From contig NC_016051.1 of NCBI RefSeq assembly GCF_000151205.2, forward strand, positions 372,001-436,000: a stretch of 64,000 nucleotides of DNA, in the 5' to 3' direction. Made by a program: the position numbers and the translations under genes. Below are positions 21,414-33,016 of this stretch, piece by piece. The notes below the pieces were generated by a model. The model searched no databases. It was given only the letters and a program-made list of their open reading frames with translations, and had not been told where the DNA came from. How positions within the stretch are numbered: the stretch's first letter is position 1; every line of letters begins with the position of its first letter. The stretch comes from Thermococcus sp. AM4. Lineage in GTDB: Archaea; Methanobacteriota_B; Thermococci; Thermococcales; Thermococcaceae.

Positions 21414-22220
21414 TCAATATTTCATCCTCGGGTTATACTCGAGAAGCATCATCCCGTTTTTGAATATCCTTATGGTTCCGCTCTCAGAGAGGCTTATGGC
21501 GGTTGCCTTGGTCAGCTTGGTTATGCCCGCCGCGGCTATGTGCCTGCTTCCCAGACCGGGGGGAAGTCTCAGATCGAGGCTCTTAGGATCCACCTCAAGG
21601 TAAACTCCCGCGGCCAGTATCCTTCCCCTGGAGCTCACTATGAAGGCCCCGTCCAGCTGGGCGAACTCCTTGATGATCTCCTTGCTCTCCCGGTCAAGGA
21701 CGTTTATCCTGTGGCCCTTGAAGGGATTCGGCAGCATGCTGTGGGAGTGCTTCATGACGTTCTTGACGTCGCCGACGACGAAGATCGTGCCGATCGGGTG
21801 CCCCTCCCTCCCCTCGATGCTCAGTTCAATGGCTATCTCGAGGAGCCTCTGGACAACTGATTGGGACTGGGAGAAAAAGCCGTTGACCGCGAAGAGGTTC
21901 TTTTTAACGGATTTGATGCCGAGCTCGGAACTCGACACGTAGACGAACGATTCTCCCTCCTTTATGAGGCCCTGCTCTATCAGGAAGGCCGAAACGAGGT
22001 TGAGAACGCTCTCCCTGTCGAGGGTTGGGGGAATGCTGAGGCGGATTAGGCGCCTGTTGCGCACGTCGAAAACGGGCCCTATGACGACAACTGTAAACTT
22101 TGTGTTGAGGAGAAGTGCCGACTCAACCTCCTTTGGAGGGGCCTCTAAGAAGACTATTATCCGGGCCTTTATCCTCTCGGCAACGGCAACCGCTGTCTCA
22201 CTAAGGACATTAATTGTCAT
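21414..22220 (-). CDS. dacZ: Diadenylate cyclase (archaeal DacZ-type, DisA_N domain)
   Basis: 268 residues. The C-terminal half is a DisA_N domain with the catalytic DGAFIVSSRGRILAAG and GSRHIAAAGITK (DGA and RHxxA motifs), so it should join two ATP into the second messenger c-di-AMP. The N-terminal half is an archaeal PK-like domain, not the DNA-binding DisA tail. No transmembrane segment, unlike bacterial CdaA. It has its own promoter (TTTTAAATA on the minus strand at 22255-22263). c-di-AMP controls osmotic balance in haloarchaea, and a similar role here is inference. Confidence 0.87.
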   Translation of the reverse strand: MTINVLSETAVAVAERIKARIIVFLEAPPKEVESALLLNTKFTVVVIGPVFDVRNRRLIRLSIPPTLDRESVLNLVSAFLIEQGLIKEGESFVYVSSSELGIKSVKKNLFAVNGFFSQSQSVVQRLLEIAIELSIEGREGHPIGTIFVVGDVKNVMKHSHSMLPNPFKGHRINVLDRESKEIIKEFAQLDGAFIVSSRGRILAAGVYLEVDPKSLDLRLPPGLGSRHIAAAGITKLTKATAISLSESGTIRIFKNGMMLLEYNPRMKY

Positions 22221-22254
22221 TTTTTCGACCCTTAGGGGGATCTTCCCGTTGGAT

Positions 22255-22263
22255 TATTTAAAA
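22255..22263 (-). promoter_or_regulatory. TATA box of dacZ
   Basis: TTTTAAATA on the minus strand, about 38 bases from the ATG; predicted transcription start near 22233. Shares a 120-base divergent region with ubiX. Confidence 0.45.
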
Positions 22264-22304
22264 TTTTTGTTACCAACCGGGGATCCTTGCGGGGAATTAG
22301 GTAA

Positions 22305-22314
22305 GCTTAAAAAG
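22305..22314 (+). promoter_or_regulatory. BRE/TATA of the ubiX-lrp operon
   Basis: GCTTAAAAAG predicts transcription from about 22336, with a leader of eight bases. Confidence 0.45.
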
Positions 22315-22343
22315 GGTAAACTTGTATAAATGGAGGGAGATTG

Positions 22344-22892
22344 ATGAGGGGAAAGCTCAGGGTAGTGGTCGCGATAACCGGAGCCAGCGGCAGCGTTTAC
22401 GGTGTGAAGCTAATCGAAACACTCAGGATGCTTGGACATGAGGTTATAACCCTGGCATCGAAGAGCGGAATGGCTGTTGCAAAGCACGAGCTCGGGGTTG
22501 ATCTAAAGCCGGATTACGACGAGGATGACCTATTTGCCCCCGTTGCCTCGGGTTCTTATCGCTTCGACGCGATGGTTATAGCTCCGTGCTCCATGAAAAC
22601 CCTGGCCTCGATAGCCAGCGGTATAACGGACAACCTGATAGCCCGGACGGCGGACGTGGCGCTAAAGGAGAGGCGGAAGCTGGTGCTCCTCATCCGCGAG
22701 ACCCCGCTGAACGTGATACACATCGAGAACATGCTCCGCGTTTCGAGGGCAGGCGCGATAGTTATGCCAGCTTCTCCAGGTTTTTACACAAAGCCCAAAA
22801 CATTGGATGATATGGTAAACTTTATAATATGGAGAGTCCTAGATCAGATCGGGGTAAATGTAAACTATCCAAGGTGGGGTGAAGGGCCATGA
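22344..22892 (+). CDS. ubiX: UbiX-family flavin prenyltransferase
   Basis: 182 residues. UbiX joins a dimethylallyl group to FMN to make the prenylated cofactor of UbiD decarboxylases. The flavoprotein fold shows [20 protein letters not shown], the [23 protein letters not shown] loop and [16 protein letters not shown]; these fit the family. The start ATG has GGAGGGAGATTG upstream. No ubiD is adjacent. The prenyl donor would come from the mevalonate pathway, two enzymes of which are in this window. The stop overlaps the Lrp-family ATG (ATGA). Confidence 0.9.
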
Positions 22893-23371
22893 TACAGCTC
22901 GACGACCTCGATAGGGCTATACTCAGGTTGCTCAAAAAGGACGCGAGGCTTACGATCTCCGAGATAGCCGAAGCGCTTAACAGGCCCGAGTCCACTGTTC
23001 ACTTCAGGATCAAAAAGCTCATTGAGAGAGGAGTTATAGACCACTACACGATACTCCTTGGACCCGAACTAAGGCCCAAGAGGACCGCTTTGGTTATCCT
23101 CCAAGTTGAAACGCCCATAATTGAGGACTTCCTCGAGCGCTACGTTAACCATATAATGAAGACCCTTTCGATGCTTCCCAACGTCCTCCTCGTTGCCAAG
23201 AGCGGTAGGGACACTGTTATAGCCCTGCTCGGCGACGAGAACGAGGAGAAACTCAACGCCTTCATAGACGAGAACATAAGGACCCTGCCGACGCTCAAGT
23301 CGGTCAACGTTTACCCGATAGACGACGTGAAGAAGGGCGAGGAGCTGGTGGGCTTCCTCGTGGAGGTGTAG
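22889..23371 (+). CDS. Lrp/AsnC-family transcriptional regulator
   Basis: 160 residues. An N-terminal winged helix ([41 protein letters not shown]) is followed by a RAM-like ferredoxin-fold ligand domain. Overlaps ubiX by four bases, so both are made together, and regulation of ubiX or of itself is possible. The effector amino acid is not known. The gene is followed after seven bases by the CYTH gene, so the operon probably has three genes. Confidence 0.88.
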
Positions 23372-23378
23372 CCAGGGC

Positions 23379-23888
23379 ATGGAGATCGAGGTGAAGTTCC
23401 GCGTGGATTTTGAGGAGACAAGGAAAAAGCTTGAATCCCTCGGTGCTGAGCTTGTCAGAACCGAGGAGCAAGAGGACCTCTATTTCTCCCTTCCGCCGAA
23501 CGAGCTGCTGAGGCTTCGACTGATACGGAACCTTGGGAAGGCGTACCTCACCCACAAGATAATTACAGATCCCGGCAGGAACGAGGAGTTCGACGAGATC
23601 GAGGTCGAAGTTTCGAGCTTTGAGGGGGCGAGGGAGATACTGAGGCGCCTCGGCTTCCGGGAGGACGTGCTGATAAGGAAGCACCGCCTCGTTTACAAAC
23701 TCGGAAACGTTACCTTCGAGCTCAACAGAGTGGAATGTGTTGGGGATTTTCTGGACATCGAGGTGATCTCCGAGAACCCGGTGGAAGCAAAGGGGAAAAT
23801 CTGGGAGCTCGCGAGGAAGCTTGGGCTGGGTGAAAACGACGTCGAGCCCCGGCTTTACACCGAATTGATAAAGGAAAAAGGATGCTAA
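23379..23888 (+). CDS. CYTH-domain protein (class IV adenylate cyclase/triphosphatase-like)
   Basis: 169 residues. The CYTH signature ExExK is at the very N-terminus (MEIEVKFRV), followed by charged strands of a triphosphate tunnel: LRLRLIRNLGKAYLTHK, EIEVEVSSFEG, IRKHRLVYKLGNVTFELNRV, FLDIEVIS. CyaB-type enzymes make cAMP or cleave inorganic or thiamine triphosphate; the activity here is not decided by sequence. Third gene after ubiX-lrp. The 3' end overlaps the HEAT-like gene by four bases. Confidence 0.87.
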   Translation: MEIEVKFRVDFEETRKKLESLGAELVRTEEQEDLYFSLPPNELLRLRLIRNLGKAYLTHKIITDPGRNEEFDEIEVEVSSFEGAREILRRLGFREDVLIRKHRLVYKLGNVTFELNRVECVGDFLDIEVISENPVEAKGKIWELARKLGLGENDVEPRLYTELIKEKGC

Positions 23889-24448
23889 ACCAGCTTTTCG
23901 AGGGTTTCCCTCGCTATATCGCCGAGCTTTACCCACTTCTTGCCCTCGAAGGGGAGTATGACTTTATCCTCAACGTCAACGAGCTCCTTCACGAGGCCCT
24001 CAAGCTCCTTTATCCTGAACTCGCCGATGAGAACCAGCATAAAGCCCTTCTGGTTGAGGTCGCCCTCCCTTAGAACGCGCTCCGCCTCCTTCATGAACAG
24101 CCCCCAGTACTTCCTCGCCACGTCGGGGAGGTCCTTTGCGAGGCGGTAGAGGAGTATCATTGCGTTCTCGCGGACGTAGGGGTTGCGGGACTCCACGAGG
24201 CTGAGGAGCCTTTTAATCGTTTCCTCGTTGAGGTGGGGCTTTATAACGTCGGGGTTGTTCTCCATGACCATGACTATTGTGAGGAGGGCGTCGCCAACGA
24301 TGCCCGGGTTTGAATCCTGGAGGAGCTCGAACAGCGCCTCCCTGACTTTCTTGTCCTTGACGGCATCCTCCACGACCAGCTGTATCTGATCCCCCTCAAG
24401 CATCTTCTTGACTTTACCCTTCTTTGATCCGAATGACAGGAATCCCAT
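23885..24448 (-). CDS. HEAT-like helical repeat protein
   Basis: 187 residues from MGFLSFGSKK, with AAGGTGA five bases upstream; a GTG three codons earlier is less likely. The chain is built of paired helices of 35-40 residues (VREALFELLQDSNPGIVGDALL, NPYVRENAMILLYRLAKDL, LNQKGFMLVLIGEFRIKELE), consistent with HEAT/ARM repeats that bind proteins. The basic N-terminal GSKKGKVKKM stands apart. No enzyme motif. Its partner is unknown. Confidence 0.68.
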   Translation of the reverse strand: MGFLSFGSKKGKVKKMLEGDQIQLVVEDAVKDKKVREALFELLQDSNPGIVGDALLTIVMVMENNPDVIKPHLNEETIKRLLSLVESRNPYVRENAMILLYRLAKDLPDVARKYWGLFMKEAERVLREGDLNQKGFMLVLIGEFRIKELEGLVKELVDVEDKVILPFEGKKWVKLGDIARETLEKLV

Positions 24449-24470
24449 TGATATCACCTTCTTTCAGTTT

Positions 24471-24501
24471 GGTTCCGAACGGTTAAATCCTTTTTGGAAC
24501 C
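24471..24501. promoter_or_regulatory. Inverted repeat between divergent HEAT-like and GT39 genes
   Basis: GGTTCC at 24471-24476 and GGAACC at 24496-24501 form a 6-base inverted repeat. The TTTAACC element for the minus-strand gene lies between the arms. It could be an operator; the arms are short. Confidence 0.25.
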
Positions 24502-24548
24502 GGGCCTAAAGTTTTAAAGAAAGGGTCTTATCTTGGTGGGGGGATTGA

Positions 24549-26786
24549 ATGAGGCCTCACCGTTTCCAGTCCCGTGACGCTACCGTCATCGCGCTCCTCG
24601 CCGTTCCCTACCTCCTGCTCAGGATCATGGTCATTCACGGTGGGATGAACGAATACTTCGACTACGACGAGGGCACCTATCTCATGATAGCCCGCTTCAT
24701 AAACCACGGAATACTGCCCTATCGGGACGTTTTCGCGGTGCATCCTCCCCTCTACTACTACCTCCTCGCCCTGTGGCTCAGGATCTTCGGTGACAGCTAC
24801 GTCGTTGGCAGAACCCTCTCCGTTGTCCTCGGTCTCATCGCGATGGTCTTTGCATACCTTACGGGAAAGGAGCTGAAGGACTGGAGGCTTGGCGCACTCT
24901 TCGCCTTCATTCTGGTCTTTGATCCGACCATGGTCCAGATGAACTCCCTCGTGTTCCACGAGACCTCGATAGAGCTCTTCACGGCGCTCTCGCTCTATCA
25001 CTTCGTCAGATACTTCAAGACGGGTGAAATGAAGCAGGCTTACCTCTCGCTCTTCTGGGCCGGGCTGGGAACCACCTCCAAGTTCACGATAATCCCCTAC
25101 GCTGTGGCGCTCTACGTGACGCTGGTGCTTTCCCTTGACGGGGAAACGCGCGGGTACGTGGAAAAAGCCGCGTCCCTTCTCTTTAACAGGGTTCAAACGT
25201 TCATACTGGCCGCCACGACGCTCTTCTTGGCCGTTATCATAGTTGATGCAATAGTCTCTTATCCTTCCGATTTTCTGAGGAGCATATTGATCGTTCCCGG
25301 GATACATCCCATAAACACGATAGGTCAAATCTTCTCCGTTGGTCTGTTCCTGGCTGTGTGGGGGGTTCTGTTTCTCCACGTCACCGGGGTGTCCTACGTG
25401 GGGGCAATCAGGAGAACCGTTGTAGTTCTCGCAAGGAACCTCAAACCCGCCCTCAAGATGGCCCTTGTTCTACTTGCCCCCAAGGTGGTGGTCGAGGGTG
25501 CTCTCGGCCTCGCGGTTTCCAAGTCATACATCTATCAGACGTATCTTGCACAAAAGGGACGCTATGCCCCGATAATCAACCCGTTCTCCTACGTTAATCA
25601 GATCATGAAGCACCTGTACTCGGCCAAATCTCAGGATTATCTGGTCTTCTACGTTCCGGCGATGGTTCTGCTCGCGGTGCTGTTAATTGAATGGGCGAAG
25701 GGGCGGAGGTTCAGCCTCGAAAAGGCCACCGGATCGCTTCTCCTCATGAACTTCCTCATGTACTTCCTGGTGTTTCCCATAGTTCCGAATCAGCGCTTCC
25801 TGTACTCGTTTTTCATGGTATTCTACCTCGTCCTGTTCTACGCACTTCTCGGTCAGCTTGAGCGTGAAAAACATGGGCGGGCGCTCCTTGGGGGACTTTT
25901 GGTGGTGATGGTGCTTGTTGGGGTTTCCGGGATTGGAATGGCCTACAGGTATCCCAGGGGTGATCTGCTCATCGCGTGGGAGTCCCATGGCAAAGAGCTC
26001 AGGGATGACCTCGGAAGGTACATAACCCAGCACAACATTTCAAACGGACTGTACTTACCGATGAATCCCTTCAACGCCTACTACCTTCATTTGAGGATAA
26101 ACCCATGGTATCTTGACGTCTTTGGAATTACCTATCTGTGCAATTCAACACAGTTCTGGGTAGCTGTCAACCAGAGCGATTACGTAATCTTCAGCACGTG
26201 GATGTACGCGATGGAGATGGAGTCTCACGTTTTCAAAACCACGTTCGGAAAACTCGAAAAGATCGCCCACATGAACTATACGGTGATGTTTTCCAAGTCG
26301 TACTTCAGGGGGGACGTGATAACCCTTGTGAAGAGATCCGGCTCCAGAAACGCCGTCTCATTCGATGCCTACCTAGGTAGGATGAGGGTGTGGATAAACG
26401 GATCTCCCATTTTCTTCCTGCATGCGTTGAGTGGATCCCTGAAGAACGATGACTTCACTGATATAGAGCTGATAAACGGCAGGTATTCGGTGACCCAGAG
26501 GGTAAACGGAACCGTGATAAAATTCTCAATGTACCATAGTGAGAACGGTGTGGATCTTCGGTTTTCCAGAACCCTTAACGTGACGCTGGAGTTCCTTGAG
26601 CCCGTTGCTGTCCTCAACGCCACCGGGAACTACGCAAAACCCGGTTATAATGGCGTGCTAAGGGTATACGCCCCAGAGCAGGGTGTTGAGTTTAACCTTG
26701 ATCTCGGGGGTGGAAAGATAGTCTCGATGTCCCCGAAGGAGGTTGTTATCGAATGCAGGGAACTAAGAATTCTCTTGTCCGGCTGA
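24549..26786 (+). CDS. GT39-family membrane glycosyltransferase
   Basis: 745 residues. The N-terminal 450 residues carry about ten hydrophobic segments. The first outer loop has the GT-C acidic signature YFDYDEGTYLMIARFINHG and then HPPLYYYLLALWLRIFGDS, typical of GT39/ArnT-like enzymes. The C-terminal about 290 residues are soluble, extracellular and rich in Asn, with several N-x-S/T sequons. It probably adds a lipid-linked sugar to surface protein or lipid. GGTGGGGGGATTGA precedes the ATG. The last 34 bases overlap the next membrane protein, so the two are translated from one message. Confidence 0.83.
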   Translation: MRPHRFQSRDATVIALLAVPYLLLRIMVIHGGMNEYFDYDEGTYLMIARFINHGILPYRDVFAVHPPLYYYLLALWLRIFGDSYVVGRTLSVVLGLIAMVFAYLTGKELKDWRLGALFAFILVFDPTMVQMNSLVFHETSIELFTALSLYHFVRYFKTGEMKQAYLSLFWAGLGTTSKFTIIPYAVALYVTLVLSLDGETRGYVEKAASLLFNRVQTFILAATTLFLAVIIVDAIVSYPSDFLRSILIVPGIHPINTIGQIFSVGLFLAVWGVLFLHVTGVSYVGAIRRTVVVLARNLKPALKMALVLLAPKVVVEGALGLAVSKSYIYQTYLAQKGRYAPIINPFSYVNQIMKHLYSAKSQDYLVFYVPAMVLLAVLLIEWAKGRRFSLEKATGSLLLMNFLMYFLVFPIVPNQRFLYSFFMVFYLVLFYALLGQLEREKHGRALLGGLLVVMVLVGVSGIGMAYRYPRGDLLIAWESHGKELRDDLGRYITQHNISNGLYLPMNPFNAYYLHLRINPWYLDVFGITYLCNSTQFWVAVNQSDYVIFSTWMYAMEMESHVFKTTFGKLEKIAHMNYTVMFSKSYFRGDVITLVKRSGSRNAVSFDAYLGRMRVWINGSPIFFLHALSGSLKNDDFTDIELINGRYSVTQRVNGTVIKFSMYHSENGVDLRFSRTLNVTLEFLEPVAVLNATGNYAKPGYNGVLRVYAPEQGVEFNLDLGGGKIVSMSPKEVVIECRELRILLSG

Positions 26787-28936
26787 TAGAACTCGTCGCC
26801 CTCCTCGCTCTGGGATTGGTTAGCCCGTACTTTTCGATTCTGGTTATCTGGTATCTGGGTTTTCTCGTGCTGGACTGGCTCCCGCCGCTGTGGAGGCTTG
26901 CGCTCGGGCCGGCGGTGGGGATGGGGATAGTTATTTTTGTAGTCCACATAACTAGCATTGTTGGGTTTTCTATCTGGCTCACAGTACCAGTAGTTTATCT
27001 TATAACGTTGCTTCTCTGGTGGAAAGATTCCAAAGGATCTTCGTTATCCAGCATGTGGAATGAAATTCCATTAATTGACAGGTTATTCTTGTCTATCTCA
27101 GTTTTCCTGTCTGCAGGATTGAAGATACCCTTCTTGAGTATTCCTTCTTATTCAAGTGCTCCTAAGGATCCCGTGTTTCATGCGTATAAAACTTGGGAGA
27201 TCTTGAAAGAAGGAACGATATTTATCAAACATGCACCAATATCTTTCTCTGGAATTTTGACGTATCCTGCGGGGTATCACTCACTTGTTGCTTGGATATC
27301 TCTAGTAAGTGGAGTTAAAGTGCCATTTTCCATGATGAGTTTGCAACTTTTCACGTGGATATTCCTTCCATTAGGTACATATCTCGCTTCTTGGAGTATG
27401 TTTCAAGATAAATGGGTCTCTCGTATATCCGCCGCGGTGATGCCTTTAACGTATCTTTACTACTATTATCTTCATTACTCATTATTGCATTTGTTTCTTG
27501 ATTACTATCTTCTTTTAGCTTCCATAGCGGTTTATACCCAGTTGATTACTGAGATTACCAAAGATTCCGTCAAACAGTATCATGTATCTTGGTTTGTGAT
27601 ATTGTTTTTACTGACATCCTCTCTTTTAATAGTACATCCATACCCCTATCTACTATTCCAGGCCTATGCGCTTTTTTTAGCTGTGTTAATTATTCCAGGC
27701 ATAACTACCTCTCAAAAAATGAGAACATTGTTTTTATTTTTCTTTCAGGCAGCGGGTAGTTTCTTGGTCTATTATTTTATTGAAGCTCCAAATCGCCTTA
27801 ACGTTGAAAGATACTCCAAGCCCTTGTTTCATATTAGCAAATACTACCTTAAGGATAATCCGCATTGGTTCTATTTTATATTAAAACAAACGTTTTGGGC
27901 CAATGGCCAGTTTGTCTTCTTGCCATTTTTTATAGTTTCGACGTTCTGGATACTTCACAGGAAAAACAAACAAGGACTTGCTTTGATATCGACATTGTTG
28001 TTTTTTATCTTCTTAATTTTTGATAAAATATGGTTTCATGTTAACGTTCCATATTATTCGGCAATATGGAACTCAGAGCGTATTTATATCCTTCTAACAC
28101 CCTTATTTCCTCTATTGCACGGTCTAGGGATTTCTTTGGTTAAAAGACACATTGAAGCGAGAAGAAAAGTAATATTGGCTATTACACTAACAGCACTTTT
28201 TGTAATTCCCGGAACATATGTTAATATAGATAATTATGCTAGGGAACTTTGTGTTACCGTCGACAATAATACATTGCTAGCATTTAGATATGTTGACTCT
28301 CTCACGGGCCCGATCTATGTACAAAACTCCCTGATGGACTCGGGAATTTGGATTCCCATTTTTACGGATAAGGAAATAATAAGAGTGACCACTCCTCCAA
28401 AAAAAGGCATCTTGTACGTGGACTCCAGAGGTTATGGAGATATCCATGCACCTCCACTAAATCCTCTTCAGTTAGTGAATAAGTCAGCGTTGATTTCATA
28501 TTATAATGGAATCTGGATTTTTAATCTTTCCCAGACGTGGCGTGATTCTAGAGAGGACGCACTTAATGATCTCTATCGCCATCTTATGCTTCGCAGGAAT
28601 TCTATCAAGGCTTACAATTTTGAGGACTGGAGATATTTTGTCTACGGCTTCCTGCTTAGACACCCCGTTGTCGTCAGGGGAATCCTCCTTAAACAGTGGA
28701 GTGGCGTATTCTCGATTGTGAACGACTCGTATATAGTGTTCATCCCCGATCAGAACTATTCTTCCCTACGGATAATAGGTCTCGGTGAGCCTGCCAGGGT
28801 GTACCTGAACGGGGTTTACCTTGGGGTTCTTGACAGGGGATCCGTATCCTTTATGACAACGCTGGAAAAAGGGAAGTTCTATGTCTTGAAGTTTGAAGGA
28901 AAAGTGTACATAGAAAGGATCATCCTCCGAGGTTAG
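26753..28936 (+). CDS. Large GT-C-like membrane protein, compositional mosaic
   Basis: 727 residues, around twelve hydrophobic segments and a soluble C-terminus. An acidic/His loop, DPVFHAYKTWEILKEGT, followed by YPAGYHSLVAWIS, looks like the first loop of GT-C glycosyltransferases. No closer family is recognised. Base composition changes sharply inside the gene: GC-rich to about 26930, strongly AT-rich (many TTT, TTA, ATA codons) to about 28640, then GC-rich again to the stop. This suggests replacement of the middle by homologous recombination with a foreign allele. GGAGGTTG lies before the ATG inside the upstream gene. The 3' end overlaps the convergent pilin by 17 bases. Confidence 0.72.
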   Translation: MQGTKNSLVRLIELVALLALGLVSPYFSILVIWYLGFLVLDWLPPLWRLALGPAVGMGIVIFVVHITSIVGFSIWLTVPVVYLITLLLWWKDSKGSSLSSMWNEIPLIDRLFLSISVFLSAGLKIPFLSIPSYSSAPKDPVFHAYKTWEILKEGTIFIKHAPISFSGILTYPAGYHSLVAWISLVSGVKVPFSMMSLQLFTWIFLPLGTYLASWSMFQDKWVSRISAAVMPLTYLYYYYLHYSLLHLFLDYYLLLASIAVYTQLITEITKDSVKQYHVSWFVILFLLTSSLLIVHPYPYLLFQAYALFLAVLIIPGITTSQKMRTLFLFFFQAAGSFLVYYFIEAPNRLNVERYSKPLFHISKYYLKDNPHWFYFILKQTFWANGQFVFLPFFIVSTFWILHRKNKQGLALISTLLFFIFLIFDKIWFHVNVPYYSAIWNSERIYILLTPLFPLLHGLGISLVKRHIEARRKVILAITLTALFVIPGTYVNIDNYARELCVTVDNNTLLAFRYVDSLTGPIYVQNSLMDSGIWIPIFTDKEIIRVTTPPKKGILYVDSRGYGDIHAPPLNPLQLVNKSALISYYNGIWIFNLSQTWRDSREDALNDLYRHLMLRRNSIKAYNFEDWRYFVYGFLLRHPVVVRGILLKQWSGVFSIVNDSYIVFIPDQNYSSLRIIGLGEPARVYLNGVYLGVLDRGSVSFMTTLEKGKFYVLKFEGKVYIERIILRG

Positions 28937-29114
28937 AGGAAACCTCGCTCAGAACTCTCTGATTGAACTGACTCTCGGCATTTGAGAGCGAATCCGCGAG
29001 GTTCTCCTCCCCTCCCTTGATTATCTTCGCATAGTGCAGGCCCCAAACAACTATTATCAGTATCAATGCAAGCATAAACAGGTATTCGATTGTACCTTGG
29101 GCCAATCTTCTCAT
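28920..29114 (-). CDS. Type IV pilin-like protein with class III signal peptide (second)
   Basis: 64 residues. The short basic leader MRRLAQGTIEYLFMLALILIIV holds the archaeal class III signal peptide motif (cleavage before QGTIEYLFML, with the +5 Glu), then a single hydrophobic assembly helix and a short polar tail ending SEVSSNLGG. Prepilin peptidase cleavage and assembly in a pilus or other surface filament are inferred from the family. AAGGTGATATA precedes the ATG. It follows the first pilin by 49 bases and overlaps the end of the mosaic GT-C gene. Confidence 0.82.
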   Translation of the reverse strand: MRRLAQGTIEYLFMLALILIIVVWGLHYAKIIKGGEENLADSLSNAESQFNQRVLSEVSSNLGG

Positions 29115-29163
29115 TATATCACCTTCCTGAAGAAATTGCGAATGGGTAAAAAAAGGTTAGAAA

Positions 29164-29349
29164 TCAACTGCTAAGAGCAGAACTGAGCTCCTTGCTAACT
29201 GCGGTATTAAGTTGCTCCTGCCCCTGCTGGATGGTCTGACCGGTGCTCTTGCTTGAGCTCTTGAGGTACTTGATCACCACTGCAACGATGATGAGCGCCG
29301 CCGCAATCATAAACAGGTACTCGATTGCACCCTGGGCCTTCCTCATCAT
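29164..29349 (-). CDS. Type IV pilin-like protein with class III signal peptide (first)
   Basis: 61 residues. MMRKAQGAIEYLFMIAAALI shows the same class III motif (QGAIEYLFMI with Glu at +5), a hydrophobic helix and a polar Ser/Gln-rich tail with no globular domain. The consensus GGAGGTGA lies five bases upstream of ATG 29349, the strongest such site in the window and consistent with a very abundant product. Two similar tiny pilins in tandem recall major pilin genes of Thermococcales. No pilus ATPase or prepilin peptidase is nearby. Confidence 0.86.
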   Translation of the reverse strand: MMRKAQGAIEYLFMIAAALIIVAVVIKYLKSSSKSTGQTIQQGQEQLNTAVSKELSSALSS

Positions 29350-29395
29350 TCACATCACCTCCGGGAGGTCTTGTCAAAATATTTAGCCTGAAACC

Positions 29396-29407
29396 CCTTT
29401 AAATAGG
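29396..29407 (-). promoter_or_regulatory. TATA box of the pilin pair
   Basis: CCTATTTAAAGG on the minus strand, itself palindromic at the core, predicts transcription from about 29375 and a leader of 25 bases with a perfect GGAGGTGA. Confidence 0.55.
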
Positions 29408-29604
29408 TTTCTCCATAATTTTGTCGGATTTCCTAGCAAAATTGGGGGATTGTTGGGGAGCATTAACGAGGATGTAAACGTATTGAATATATCACAAAAT
29501 AGCCCCGGCTGGATTAAAGTTAATACAATAAGATTTGAGGTGGCACATTTTGACATGATTTTACTACTGCATTTTAACGGATGGAAAAGCGTGAAGAGGA
29601 AGGG
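29408..29604. other. AT-rich intergenic region between pilins and HTH regulator
   Basis: About 200 bases with no convincing gene. A 73-codon open frame from 29450 has no ribosome binding site and no recognisable protein character. ATTTTGAC at 29546-29553 is the inverted match of GTCAAAAT at 29373-29380 by the pilin start of transcription, which could be paired sites for the divergent regulator. Confidence 0.35.
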
Positions 29605-29616
29605 TTTATATATTTT
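29605..29616 (+). promoter_or_regulatory. TATA box of the HTH regulator
   Basis: TTTATATATTTT predicts a start of transcription near 29634 and a leader of about 12 bases with GGGGAGGAGT. Confidence 0.5.
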
Positions 29617-29645
29617 ACGCCCCTACATAGCTTCCGGGGAGGAGT

Positions 29646-30191
29646 ATGAGGCTGTTCCACGTCTCCTGTGAATCCGCCAGCGTTGAGGATTGCATCGAGG
29701 AGTTCACATCGAAAATAAACCAGGTATTATCAGGTTCTGGATGTTACATAAAATCAGCAGACCTTAACCTGACGTTCGGTGCGTTTATGCACCTATCGGC
29801 GGGACTGCTGGTTGATCCCTCAACCCCGGGCGGAAGGGTCGTGGCGAAGTATTCCGCAGGAAGGAGCAGGGAAAGTGCCATTGAGGGCGTCCTCGCGGAG
29901 ATAAACCCCCTGATCGAGAACGCCGAGGTTGTCGCGTTTAAGTTTGGAACCTACACAACGCCGGTGACGAGGCGAACCTACGCTGTGGGCGTCGTTGCCT
30001 ACAACCTCCCTATGAAGCCAGCGAGCCAGATAAGCGAGACCGCCGACAGAAGAAAGCTCCTCGCTCACGTGCTCTCCCTGTTTGAATACAACCCCAAAGT
30101 TCTCAACATCTCAGAACTCGCAAGGGTCTTCGGCGTTTCGAGGGATACTATCTACTACGACATTCAGCAGATACTGAAGGAAAAAAAGTGA
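29646..30191 (+). CDS. HTH-domain transcriptional regulator, divergent from the pilins
   Basis: 181 residues. The C-terminal 50 residues form a helix-turn-helix (LNISELARVFGVSRDTIYYDIQQIL). The N-terminal 125 residues are an unrecognised alpha/beta domain with FGAFMHLSAGLLVDP and repeated charged helices. The start has GGGGAGGAGT directly ahead. Its divergent position suggests control of the pilin pair, which is inference. It ends right where the convergent S2P protease gene ends. Confidence 0.72.
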   Translation: MRLFHVSCESASVEDCIEEFTSKINQVLSGSGCYIKSADLNLTFGAFMHLSAGLLVDPSTPGGRVVAKYSAGRSRESAIEGVLAEINPLIENAEVVAFKFGTYTTPVTRRTYAVGVVAYNLPMKPASQISETADRRKLLAHVLSLFEYNPKVLNISELARVFGVSRDTIYYDIQQILKEKK

Positions 30192-31433
30192 TCACCTGAC
30201 GAAGAACGGCACAGGGGTTGCGGTCAGCACGAATATTATCAGGGCGAGGATTGCCAGAGCCTTTCTGCTCCACGAGATCGGGCTGACCTCGTCCAAAGCC
30301 CCGGGGTTTCCGGAGCCACCGATGAAGAGCACGAGCAGACCCCATATCATCCATCCGCTCCAGAGGTAGCTCATTAGTATCAGTGTCAGTCCTATCCCTA
30401 TCGTGAAGTACCTGTGAAGCCTCTCGCTCATGAAGGCCCTCGCTATGTGCCCCCCGTCTAGCTGTGCGGCCGGGATAAGATTGAGGAACGTGACGAGGAT
30501 CCCAACCCAGCCCGCTATGGCAACGGGATGCAGGAACACCACGTAATCACCGCCGGCGACGTTTTCACTCAGTATGAGCTTCTCAAGTATCGTGAAGAAC
30601 AGGTTCGTGCCGAGGTAGAGCCCCTTGCCGGAGCTTGGGACAAGGGAAGCCGGAACCACCGGGGAAAGTCTGAGCCCGATTATGGTGACGGGAATCGCCA
30701 CCAGAATGCCCGCTAAGGGACCGCTGACACCGAGGTCGATGGCGGCGTTTCTGGTTGGAACCGGGGACTTTACCCTTATCACTGCCCCGAGCGTTCCGAG
30801 CAGGTTGGGGAAGGGAATGAAGTAGGGGAAGGTTGCCTTAACGTTGTGCATCGTTGCGGCTATCTTGTGGCCCATCTCGTGTGTTCCCAGGATCGCCAGC
30901 ACGCTGAGGGAGAAGGCAACGGCTATGACGTACGGATTCCGGTAGCCCGGCAGGCCCAGCTGGTCGAGCGTCGCTATGTACTGGATCGCGAGAACGTAAC
31001 CGGCCCAGAGTGTGGAGAGCAGGGTGAGGATGAAGAGCGCTATTCCTACCTTCGGGTTGTCCGGCTTAACCTCGCCGGCCGGAAAGACGTACAGAACGAC
31101 ATCCCCTCCGGCCCTCTTTAATGCGGCCCAGTAGCCGCGGCCTTCAAACTCCTGCAGAACGGTCTCAAAATCCCGTTCGAGTATTTCTAAAACCCTGAAA
31201 ACGTACACCTCGCCCCTTTTTTCAACGAACTCCGCCCGGTAGAACCTCGATACAAGTTCTTCAACTCCAAAGAGGTCCTCACCCGCAGAAGGTGCCTCTC
31301 CGGCATCGATGGCAAAGCCAACAAGAACCATGTCGCCGCCGCATTTGGGGCACGCTCCTTCAAGGAGGGCCTCGTTTGACTCGATGATCTCCCTGTGCCC
31401 GCAGTTGACGCACTCGTAAATTCCCTTCGGCAT
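30192..31433 (-). CDS. Site-2 protease family (M50) zinc metalloprotease
   Basis: 413 residues. The N-terminus is a zinc ribbon (CVNCGH and CPKCGG pairs), followed by about 110 soluble residues and then at least six hydrophobic segments. The protease motif HEMGH (GTHEMGHKIAA) supplies two zinc ligands and the catalytic Glu; IPAAQLDGGHIARAF supplies the Asp ligand. It cleaves membrane-embedded substrates; the target is unknown. GGGGGAGAAG precedes the ATG, and TTTTTAACC near 31460 is the likely TATA. The zinc ribbon fusion is characteristic of archaeal members. Confidence 0.9.
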   Translation of the reverse strand: MPKGIYECVNCGHREIIESNEALLEGACPKCGGDMVLVGFAIDAGEAPSAGEDLFGVEELVSRFYRAEFVEKRGEVYVFRVLEILERDFETVLQEFEGRGYWAALKRAGGDVVLYVFPAGEVKPDNPKVGIALFILTLLSTLWAGYVLAIQYIATLDQLGLPGYRNPYVIAVAFSLSVLAILGTHEMGHKIAATMHNVKATFPYFIPFPNLLGTLGAVIRVKSPVPTRNAAIDLGVSGPLAGILVAIPVTIIGLRLSPVVPASLVPSSGKGLYLGTNLFFTILEKLILSENVAGGDYVVFLHPVAIAGWVGILVTFLNLIPAAQLDGGHIARAFMSERLHRYFTIGIGLTLILMSYLWSGWMIWGLLVLFIGGSGNPGALDEVSPISWSRKALAILALIIFVLTATPVPFFVR

Positions 31434-31633
31434 CTTCTCCCCCAGTATGGAGGGAAGGGAAAGGTTAAAAATCTACCCGTCGATGATTTCGATCTTGCCT
31501 TTATCGGTGTGCATCTTTCAGCGAGGGCATCATTGTATCCTCGAGAAGCTTAACTTGTTCTGGCAATACTAATTAAGTGATACAAGACAATAGCTTTTTA
31601 TCCTACCATGATGAACTACACTTGGTGGTGGCC

Positions 31634-33016
31634 TTGGAAGAAAGACTGATTGAGAGCCTCGTGAGGAGGACCATCGACACAGCCGAGGCAAGGCTCAGAA
31701 AGTACGTGTTCACTCCAACCGGAGAAAAAAGACCTGAAAGGAAACCCCTCACGAAACTCAAGGAGAATGTTGAGTTGTTTCTCCAAACCCGGGAAAACAG
31801 CCTTCTGGTTCTCTACGGTCTTCGCGGTGTCGGAAAGACCACCATGCTCGCTCAAATCTACTTCAAGCTTCTTCCCCAGATTCCAAGGGAGAGACTTGTC
31901 TACGTCTCCCTCGACAAGCTTCGCTCGCTGGGAATAAGCCTGAATGACTTTGTCCGAGCCTACGAACGCCTCCTCGGTGAGAGGATTGAAGAGCTGAGTC
32001 AGCCGACCTTCCTATTCATCGACGAAGCCCACTATGACGAGAACTTCGGGATTACGGTGAAGGACCTTCATGACTCCGTGAGTAACCTCATGATTGTGGT
32101 CACTGGATCTTCTTCACTTCCCCTTAAGCTCGACCCCGACCTGATGAGAAGGGCCAGAAAGCTCAGGGTGCCGCCTTTAACCTTCACAGAATACCTACTT
32201 TTAAAGAAGAAAATACAAATCCCCGAGGAGCTCAGTGCAGCTTTAAAGAGGGCATTCCTCAGCTGTGATTTCTCAGAAATTGAAGAGCAGCTTGGGGGAG
32301 TGCTCCTGAAGTTTACTGAAAAAGACGTCGAGGATTACCTCATCCAAGGCTCGCTCCCCCTTTACCTCGCTTCGCCAAACCCGCTTGAGGATGCCTATGA
32401 GATACTGAGGAAGATTGTCGAGGTTGATTTAATGCACGAGGGTCTTTCCGAGACGACGAGAGAAAAGGCCCTTGGATTGTTACTCCTCCTTGCTTCCGGC
32501 GAGAGCTTGGCTTACGATGACCTGAGCTCGACTCTGGGGCTCGCCAAGGCGACCGTGGAAAAGATGATTGAGAAGCTTGAGGACCTCGAAGTCATCTTTC
32601 CGGTAAGGGCCTACGGCTCTCTGGGCAAGGTCGCCCGAAAGACCCCAAAATACAAGTTCCTGGCACCAATGTTGAGGAGCGCGGTGCTTTACGAGTTCGG
32701 ACTCTTTGAGAGGGATTCAAAAACGCTCGGTATGCTCCTTGAGGACGCGGTTGCTCTTTATCTCCATCTGCTCGCTAGGGAGCACAAACTCGGCCTTCAC
32801 TACGATGCCCAGAGGGGCGGTGCGGACTTCATCTTGAAGGGACACGGCGAAGGAGTCGTGGTTGAGGTTGGTTGGGGGAAGAAGGGCGTCCGTCAAGTTC
32901 TCAGGACCATGAAGAAGACTGGATTAACCTGCGGCGTCGTGGTTCACAATGGGCCGTTGAAAAAGAAAGGAGACGTGTGGTTTGTGCCGAGGGAGCTCTT
33001 TTTGCTGATGCTTTGA
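31634..33016 (+). CDS. AAA-type ATPase with DUF4143-like C-terminal region
   Basis: About 461 residues. Walker A LYGLRGVGKTTMLAQ, Walker B FLFIDEAHYD and sensor VVTGSSSLPL place it in the large archaeal family of STAND/AAA-like ATPases of unknown function. A winged-helix stretch (YDDLSSTLGLAKATVEKMIEKL) precedes a C-terminal part with nuclease-like character (RGGADFILKGHGEGVVVEVGWG). The frame reaches to 31577, but the TATA at 31595-31602 predicts transcription from about 31625. A TTG at 31634 after GGTGGTGGCC fits best; start uncertain. Members are often patchily distributed, and it stands alone here. Confidence 0.72.
   Translation: MEERLIESLVRRTIDTAEARLRKYVFTPTGEKRPERKPLTKLKENVELFLQTRENSLLVLYGLRGVGKTTMLAQIYFKLLPQIPRERLVYVSLDKLRSLGISLNDFVRAYERLLGERIEELSQPTFLFIDEAHYDENFGITVKDLHDSVSNLMIVVTGSSSLPLKLDPDLMRRARKLRVPPLTFTEYLLLKKKIQIPEELSAALKRAFLSCDFSEIEEQLGGVLLKFTEKDVEDYLIQGSLPLYLASPNPLEDAYEILRKIVEVDLMHEGLSETTREKALGLLLLLASGESLAYDDLSSTLGLAKATVEKMIEKLEDLEVIFPVRAYGSLGKVARKTPKYKFLAPMLRSAVLYEFGLFERDSKTLGMLLEDAVALYLHLLAREHKLGLHYDAQRGGADFILKGHGEGVVVEVGWGKKGVRQVLRTMKKTGLTCGVVVHNGPLKKKGDVWFVPRELFLLML

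What the first reader, a model, noticed from the sequence alone, without database searches (positions are those of the whole stretch)
26753..28936. Mosaic GT-C gene: AT-rich core between GC-rich ends
Composition changes abruptly at about 26930 and 28640 inside one uninterrupted reading frame. The ends look like the host, the middle does not. This fits allelic replacement by recombination in conserved flanks, as seen in surface-glycan loci under diversifying selection. It sits beside pilin genes.
Basis: partly seen in the sequence, partly recalled or inferred. Interest (0 to 1): 0.6.

Follow-up and report, generated by a model that had tools for sequence, protein, structure and literature searches.

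The report
Recombinant sugar-transferase gene beside pilin genes
In this heat-loving archaeon, a membrane sugar-transferase gene next to pilin genes keeps its own two ends, but its whole catalytic middle appears to have been swapped for a distantly related, AT-rich version; the neighbourhood is a slot whose sugar-transferase genes differ from species to species.

Summary
Synonymous GC3 in the frame is 0.68, then 0.36-0.41, then 0.60 (host 0.715), with change points at 26933 and 28637; no permutation (0 of 400) and none of 59 homologous slot genes shows it. The protein is a DUF6541-like GT-C glycosyltransferase with a carbohydrate-binding-module-like tail. DNA colinear with the sister genome G009 (75%) stops at 26938 and resumes at 28637. 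Relative to the upstream PMT_2 gene, the core is 2.18 times as diverged from G009 (0.70-1.33 in 27 other pairs); the first 60 codons are not. Best reading: the catalytic core was replaced by recombination with a diverged allele from an unsampled AT-rich relative. Tree topology does not show it (G009 is sister throughout), no donor was found, and the 3' end is inconclusive by distance. The gene sits in a conserved slot (HEAT gene, cassette, pilins, regulator): of 41 complete slots in the genus, 17 are empty and 24 hold 12 layouts. A well-supported new example of known replacement-island and mosaic-gene behaviour; glycan target and selection are inferred.

The parts
23885..24457 (-). HEAT-repeat protein, conserved left border of the slot
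   Evidence: Pfam HEAT hits; found beside the slot in 41 genomes of the genus
24549..26786 (+). PMT_2-type GT-C glycosyltransferase (745 aa), host-like composition; overlaps the next gene by 34 bp
   Evidence: PF13231 E=1.2e-19; GC3 0.58-0.80 along the gene
26753..28936 (+). Mosaic DUF6541-like GT-C glycosyltransferase, 727 aa
26753..26932 (+). Host-like 5' segment (codons 1-60, first transmembrane helices)
   Evidence: GC3 0.68; colinear with G009 to 26938 at 75%; divergence in line with neighbours
26933..28636 (+). AT-rich replaced core holding the whole catalytic module (invariant D139, H143, D529-S530-G531, R559-G560)
   Evidence: change points; excess divergence; invariant residues; structure
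28637..28936 (+). Host-like 3' segment (codons 629-727), including the carbohydrate-binding-module-like beta sandwich (about residues 650-727)
   Evidence: GC3 0.60; DNA homology with G009 resumes at 28637; CBM6 structural matches
28920..29114 (-). Short class III signal peptide pilin-like protein (64 aa)
   Evidence: PF04021 23.1 bits, just under cut-off 23.7
29164..29349 (-). Short class III signal peptide pilin-like protein (61 aa)
   Evidence: PF04021 34.2 bits, above cut-off
29646..30191 (+). HTH regulator-like protein, conserved right border of the slot
   Evidence: weak HTH hits; present in the 41 complete slots
30192..31433 (-). Polytopic membrane protein, read as a site-2-protease-type metalloprotease from its HExxH-type motif; flanking gene of the slot
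   Evidence: translation; conserved next to the slot in relatives

Best explanation
The gene is a recombinant allele. An ancestor in this lineage carried a native DUF6541-like GT-C gene right after the PMT_2 gene, as G009 still does. Recombination replaced about 1.7 kb (26933-28636), the catalytic transmembrane and extracellular core, with the same part of a diverged allele from an AT-rich, unsampled Thermococcaceae relative. The native 5' end and the C-terminal carbohydrate-binding-module-like domain were kept. Shown: the composition mosaic, its coincidence with loss of G009 homology, the excess core divergence, the GT-C fold (by prediction), the variable slot. Inferred: that G000 (not G009) received the new core, that homologous recombination in the conserved motifs did it, and that the enzyme moves a lipid-linked sugar onto a surface molecule, so that the swap may change the surface glycan.
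For: Sharp synonymous composition mosaic, not from amino-acid composition. Colinear DNA with G009 runs 21414-26938 and 28637-31483, with only two short matches between. Core/PMT_2 distance ratio 2.18 for this pair against 0.70-1.33 in 27 other pairs. Relative divergence d12/d3 is .31-.44 for HEAT, PMT_2, HTH, protease and a further neighbour, and .34 for codons 1-60, but .75 [.65-.85] for the core. No homologous gene has the pattern. Junctions lie in locally conserved motifs PAVGMGIVI and DWRYFVYGFLLRHP, at about the 79th and 84-92nd percentile of local conservation. The slot content changes between species. GT-C fold with a CBM6-like tail.
Against: G009 is sister in every segment, so no incongruent topology. 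No donor found: the best core match is 53% in all 115 held genomes of the phylum. The 3' segment does not behave clearly as native by distance (C/PMT_2 1.70; d12/d3 .79 [.55-1.04]). The BLAST boundary is not fully independent of composition, since a GC shift itself lowers nucleotide identity. Even at the ends homology to known alleles is only about 65-75%, low for homologous recombination, so the real donor must have been closer there.
Confidence: 0.73

Rival explanations
1. Acquisition and partial overwriting: the whole gene was acquired from an AT-rich relative, and its ends were later overwritten by host-like DNA. The end product is the same mosaic with the opposite order of events.
For: Slot genes have lower GC3 than their flanks in 53 of 59 cases, so wholesale import of AT-rich genes is common here; the less sharp right edge could reflect stepwise overwriting.
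Against: The first 60 codons share G009's level of divergence with the PMT_2 gene and flanks, and the gene order is the same as in G009, so a native gene was probably already there.
Confidence: 0.12
2. No recombination: the core evolved fast in place under diversifying or relaxed selection in the G000 and G009 lineages, with an AT drift in G000.
For: Uniform topology. Other sister pairs also show a smaller normalised distance in the C-terminal segment than in the core, so part of the contrast at the 3' end is ordinary rate variation.
Against: A change in synonymous GC3 from about 0.7 to 0.36 across a few codons is not expected from selection on protein. The core/PMT_2 ratio is an outlier among 28 pairs. 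No relative shows the pattern.
Confidence: 0.1
3. The unusual core divergence reflects a replacement in G009 rather than in G000, and the AT-rich core is the old state of this gene in G000.
For: Distances of the two cores to third parties are nearly equal (d13 .99, d23 .95), so distance cannot say which lineage changed.
Against: G009's gene shows no comparable contrast in composition (z 4.5), whereas G000's core departs abruptly from its own ends and host.
Confidence: 0.05

Closest known systems
Replacement flexible genomic islands (Lopez-Perez et al. 2014, PMC4033161)
   Same: Same chromosomal site, similar surface function, different gene content between relatives; exchange attributed to recombination in conserved flanks.
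   Different: Here an exchange inside a single gene is seen as well, and the available relatives are different species, so recent junction SNP peaks cannot be examined.
VARTIG hypervariable modules of Thermococcales (Makarova et al. 2021, PMC8416519)
   Same: Thermococcales; intragenic recombination between species giving mosaic surface-related proteins; alleles seemingly too diverged for ordinary homologous recombination.
   Different: VARTIG recombines the C-terminal Ig domain of arCOG07710 proteins; here the catalytic core of a glycosyltransferase is exchanged and the C-terminal domain is kept.
DUF6541 (PF20176) and the GT-C fold (STT3/AglB/PglB, DPY19, AftA, ArnT)
   Same: Seven of 15 family members match PF20176; the model matches GT-C enzymes; invariant Asp in the first large loop.
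   Different: The query itself has no Pfam hit; it carries extra N-terminal helices and a CBM6-like tail; structural similarity is at fold level only (TM about 0.3-0.4).
Species-specific recognition by Ups pili and S-layer N-glycans in Sulfolobales (PMC7064770)
   Same: Links variable pilins and species-specific glycans to cell recognition; a possible analogue for why the slot varies.
   Different: Different phylum and different pili; no functional data for this locus; the two adjacent pilins have no N-glycosylation sequon.

Membership tests
Mosaic (recombinant) gene | Abrupt composition change at both ends of an internal segment beyond chance | tested here: met
Mosaic (recombinant) gene | Segments with different histories: incongruent tree topology (one possible sign, not a required one) | tested here: not met
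   G009 sister in N, core and C segments
Mosaic (recombinant) gene | Segments with different histories: different relative depth | tested here: met
   core against 5' segment and neighbours; 3' segment inconclusive
Mosaic (recombinant) gene | Identifiable donor allele (supporting, not required) | tested here: not met
   best core match 53% in 115 genomes of the phylum; nothing in plasmids
GT-C glycosyltransferase | GT-C fold | tested here: met
   AlphaFold2 pLDDT 85, pTM 0.87; STT3, AglB and PglB matches E 1e-6 to 1e-4
GT-C glycosyltransferase | Conserved acidic residue in the first large extracytoplasmic loop | tested here: met
   D139 invariant in 15 family members
GT-C glycosyltransferase | Transferase activity with a polyprenyl-phosphate-linked sugar | not testable with these tools
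   needs biochemistry
DUF6541 (PF20176) | Profile match above cut-off | tested here: inconclusive
   7 of 15 family members match (best 1.5e-17), the query itself does not
Replacement flexible genomic island | Same flanks, same kind of function, different genes in relatives | tested here: met
   41 complete slots: 17 empty, 24 filled in 12 layouts
Replacement flexible genomic island | Variation between strains of one species | not testable with these tools
   one genome per species is held
Locus under diversifying selection | Excess non-synonymous change among recent alleles | not testable with these tools
   synonymous sites are close to saturated between the available alleles

The most novel reading that the evidence does not exclude
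The HEAT-pilin-HTH slot is a dedicated variation site for pilus or surface glycans in Thermococcaceae. Whole glycosyltransferase cassettes and even the catalytic cores of single enzymes are exchanged between species through short conserved motifs, changing surface identity for cell recognition or virus escape.
Probability: 0.25. Interest if true: 0.68.

Novelty: new member of a known kind. Interest (0 to 1): 0.43.

Why it matters
It shows recombination in a hyperthermophilic archaeon apparently exchanging an enzyme's catalytic module while keeping its anchor and sugar-binding-like tail, at a locus tied to pilins. The slot gives a defined place with natural empty, native and swapped alleles, so whether surface sugars there govern cell recognition or virus entry becomes directly testable in a genetically tractable genus.

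Tried and rejected
Amino-acid composition as the cause of low GC: rejected, expected 50.7% against 37.1% observed. Gene overlaps as the cause of GC-rich ends: rejected, overlaps are 34 and 17 bp only. Ancestral pattern: rejected, no relative has it. Donor search by DNA in 115 genomes of the class, by protein in the phylum, in plasmids and in GTDB contigs: no donor. Direct repeats at the junctions as traces of a mobile element: none found. C-terminal distance contrast to far outgroups: first looked like support, then set aside because other sister pairs show it too.

Full report
Observation. The 727-codon frame at 26753-28936 is uninterrupted. Synonymous GC choice changes at 26933 (support 26924-26987) and 28637 (28577-28661), with a log-likelihood gain of 23 over a uniform gene. 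On total GC the left edge is equally sharp (26915-26936) and the right edge broad (28175-28673). GC3 is .68 in codons 1-60.36-.42 in the middle and .60 in the tail; the host average is .715, and host codons would give the middle 50.7% GC against 37.1% seen. No permutation of codons reproduces the contrast (0 of 400). It ranks third among 176 long ORFs sampled; the first looks like an over-called start and the second is a coiled coil of biased composition.

Identity of the gene. Members of its family in Thermococcaceae match DUF6541 (7 of 15); the query alone has no Pfam hit. An AlphaFold2 model from the 15-sequence alignment (pLDDT 85, pTM 0.87) matches GT-C enzymes: oligosaccharyltransferases STT3, AglB and PglB, then DPY19, AftA and ArnT. 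The last 80 residues match CBM6-type carbohydrate-binding modules at lower significance. Invariant residues include D139 and H143 in the first large loop, D529-S530-G531 and R559-G560; all lie in the AT-rich core. The host-like parts are the first helices and the C-terminal sandwich.

Test of mosaic origin. (a) Homology along the DNA: with G009 the window is colinear from 21414 to 26938 (75.5%) and from 28637 to 31483 (73.5%), with only two short matches between. This agrees with the composition break points, although a GC shift itself lowers nucleotide identity, so the two are not fully independent. (b) Protein distances: relative to the neighbouring PMT_2 gene, the core is 2.18 times as diverged between G000 and G009; 27 other pairs of genomes give 0.70-1.33. 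The first 60 codons have the same relative depth (.34) as HEAT, PMT_2, HTH, protease and a further neighbour (.31-.44), whereas the core has .75 [.65-.85]. (c) Relatives: none of 59 homologous slot genes in other genomes exceeds z 4.8 on the same statistic, against 7.5 here, so the pattern is not ancestral. (d) Junctions: both fall in locally conserved motifs, which is suggestive only.

Limits. G009 is sister in all three segments, so the donor must be a branch near the G000/G009 pair. No donor was found. For the 3' segment the composition and DNA homology say native, the distances are inconclusive (C/PMT_2 1.70, d12/d3 .79 [.55-1.04]). The low C-terminal ratio to far outgroups is shared by other sister pairs and was not counted. 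Which of the two lineages changed rests on composition.

Setting. The gene lies in a chromosomal slot between a HEAT-repeat gene and short class III signal-peptide pilins with an HTH protein behind them. In 41 genomes of the genus with both borders found, the slot has no glycosyltransferase cassette in 17 and carries 12 different layouts in 24: PMT_2 alone, PMT_2 followed by this type, other deeply diverged GT-C types, or other genes; the HEAT-HTH distance runs from 250 to 7617 bp. In one genome listed as PMT_2 alone (G029) the second GT-C gene was hidden by the overlap filter, so the layout counts are approximate. G007, the genome with the most similar flanks, is colinear up to 24448 and again from 28930 at 81-85%, with a different cassette between. 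In 53 of 59 cases slot genes have lower GC3 than their flanks. So exchange at this site is general, and the intragenic swap is an extreme case of it.

Mechanism. Most likely DNA from a related, AT-rich species recombined into the native gene through short conserved stretches, giving an enzyme with a new catalytic module. That the enzyme acts in decorating the pili or another surface molecule is inferred from fold and neighbourhood. The two adjacent pilins have no N-X-S/T sequon, so N-glycosylation of these two short pilins is unlikely and the target is open.

Comparison. This fits the idea of replacement flexible genomic islands (PMC4033161) and resembles the interspecies intragenic recombination described for VARTIG modules in the same order (PMC8416519), where the authors also remark that the alleles seem too diverged for homologous recombination. 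Species-specific recognition by pili and glycans in Sulfolobales (PMC7064770) is a possible functional analogue. From memory and contig length only, G000 may be Thermococcus sp. AM4 and G007 T. gammatolerans; this was not verified.

Noticed in passing
31577-33016: An AAA_14/DUF4143 ATPase gene stands between the protease gene and 33057 in this genome; G007 and G009 are colinear across the site without it, so it looks like a lineage-specific insertion.
   Followed up: partly
L074:2536-6650 (G015): The same slot in another species holds an AT-rich cassette (37-39% GC) of radical SAM/B12-binding, UbiA prenyltransferase and DUF2079 membrane proteins in front of PMT_2.
   Followed up: partly
L079:10123-12362 (G005): A homologous GT-C gene appears split into two frames, probably a pseudogene or a frameshift.
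   Followed up: no
L105:617-5951 (window genome, about 1820600-1826000): An AT-rich cluster of genes with GC3 0.33-0.35, the lowest in the sampled genome; likely another imported island.
   Followed up: no
24449-28929 against G007 (L067): The whole slot differs from the genome with the most similar flanks (81-85% identical on both sides).
   Followed up: yes
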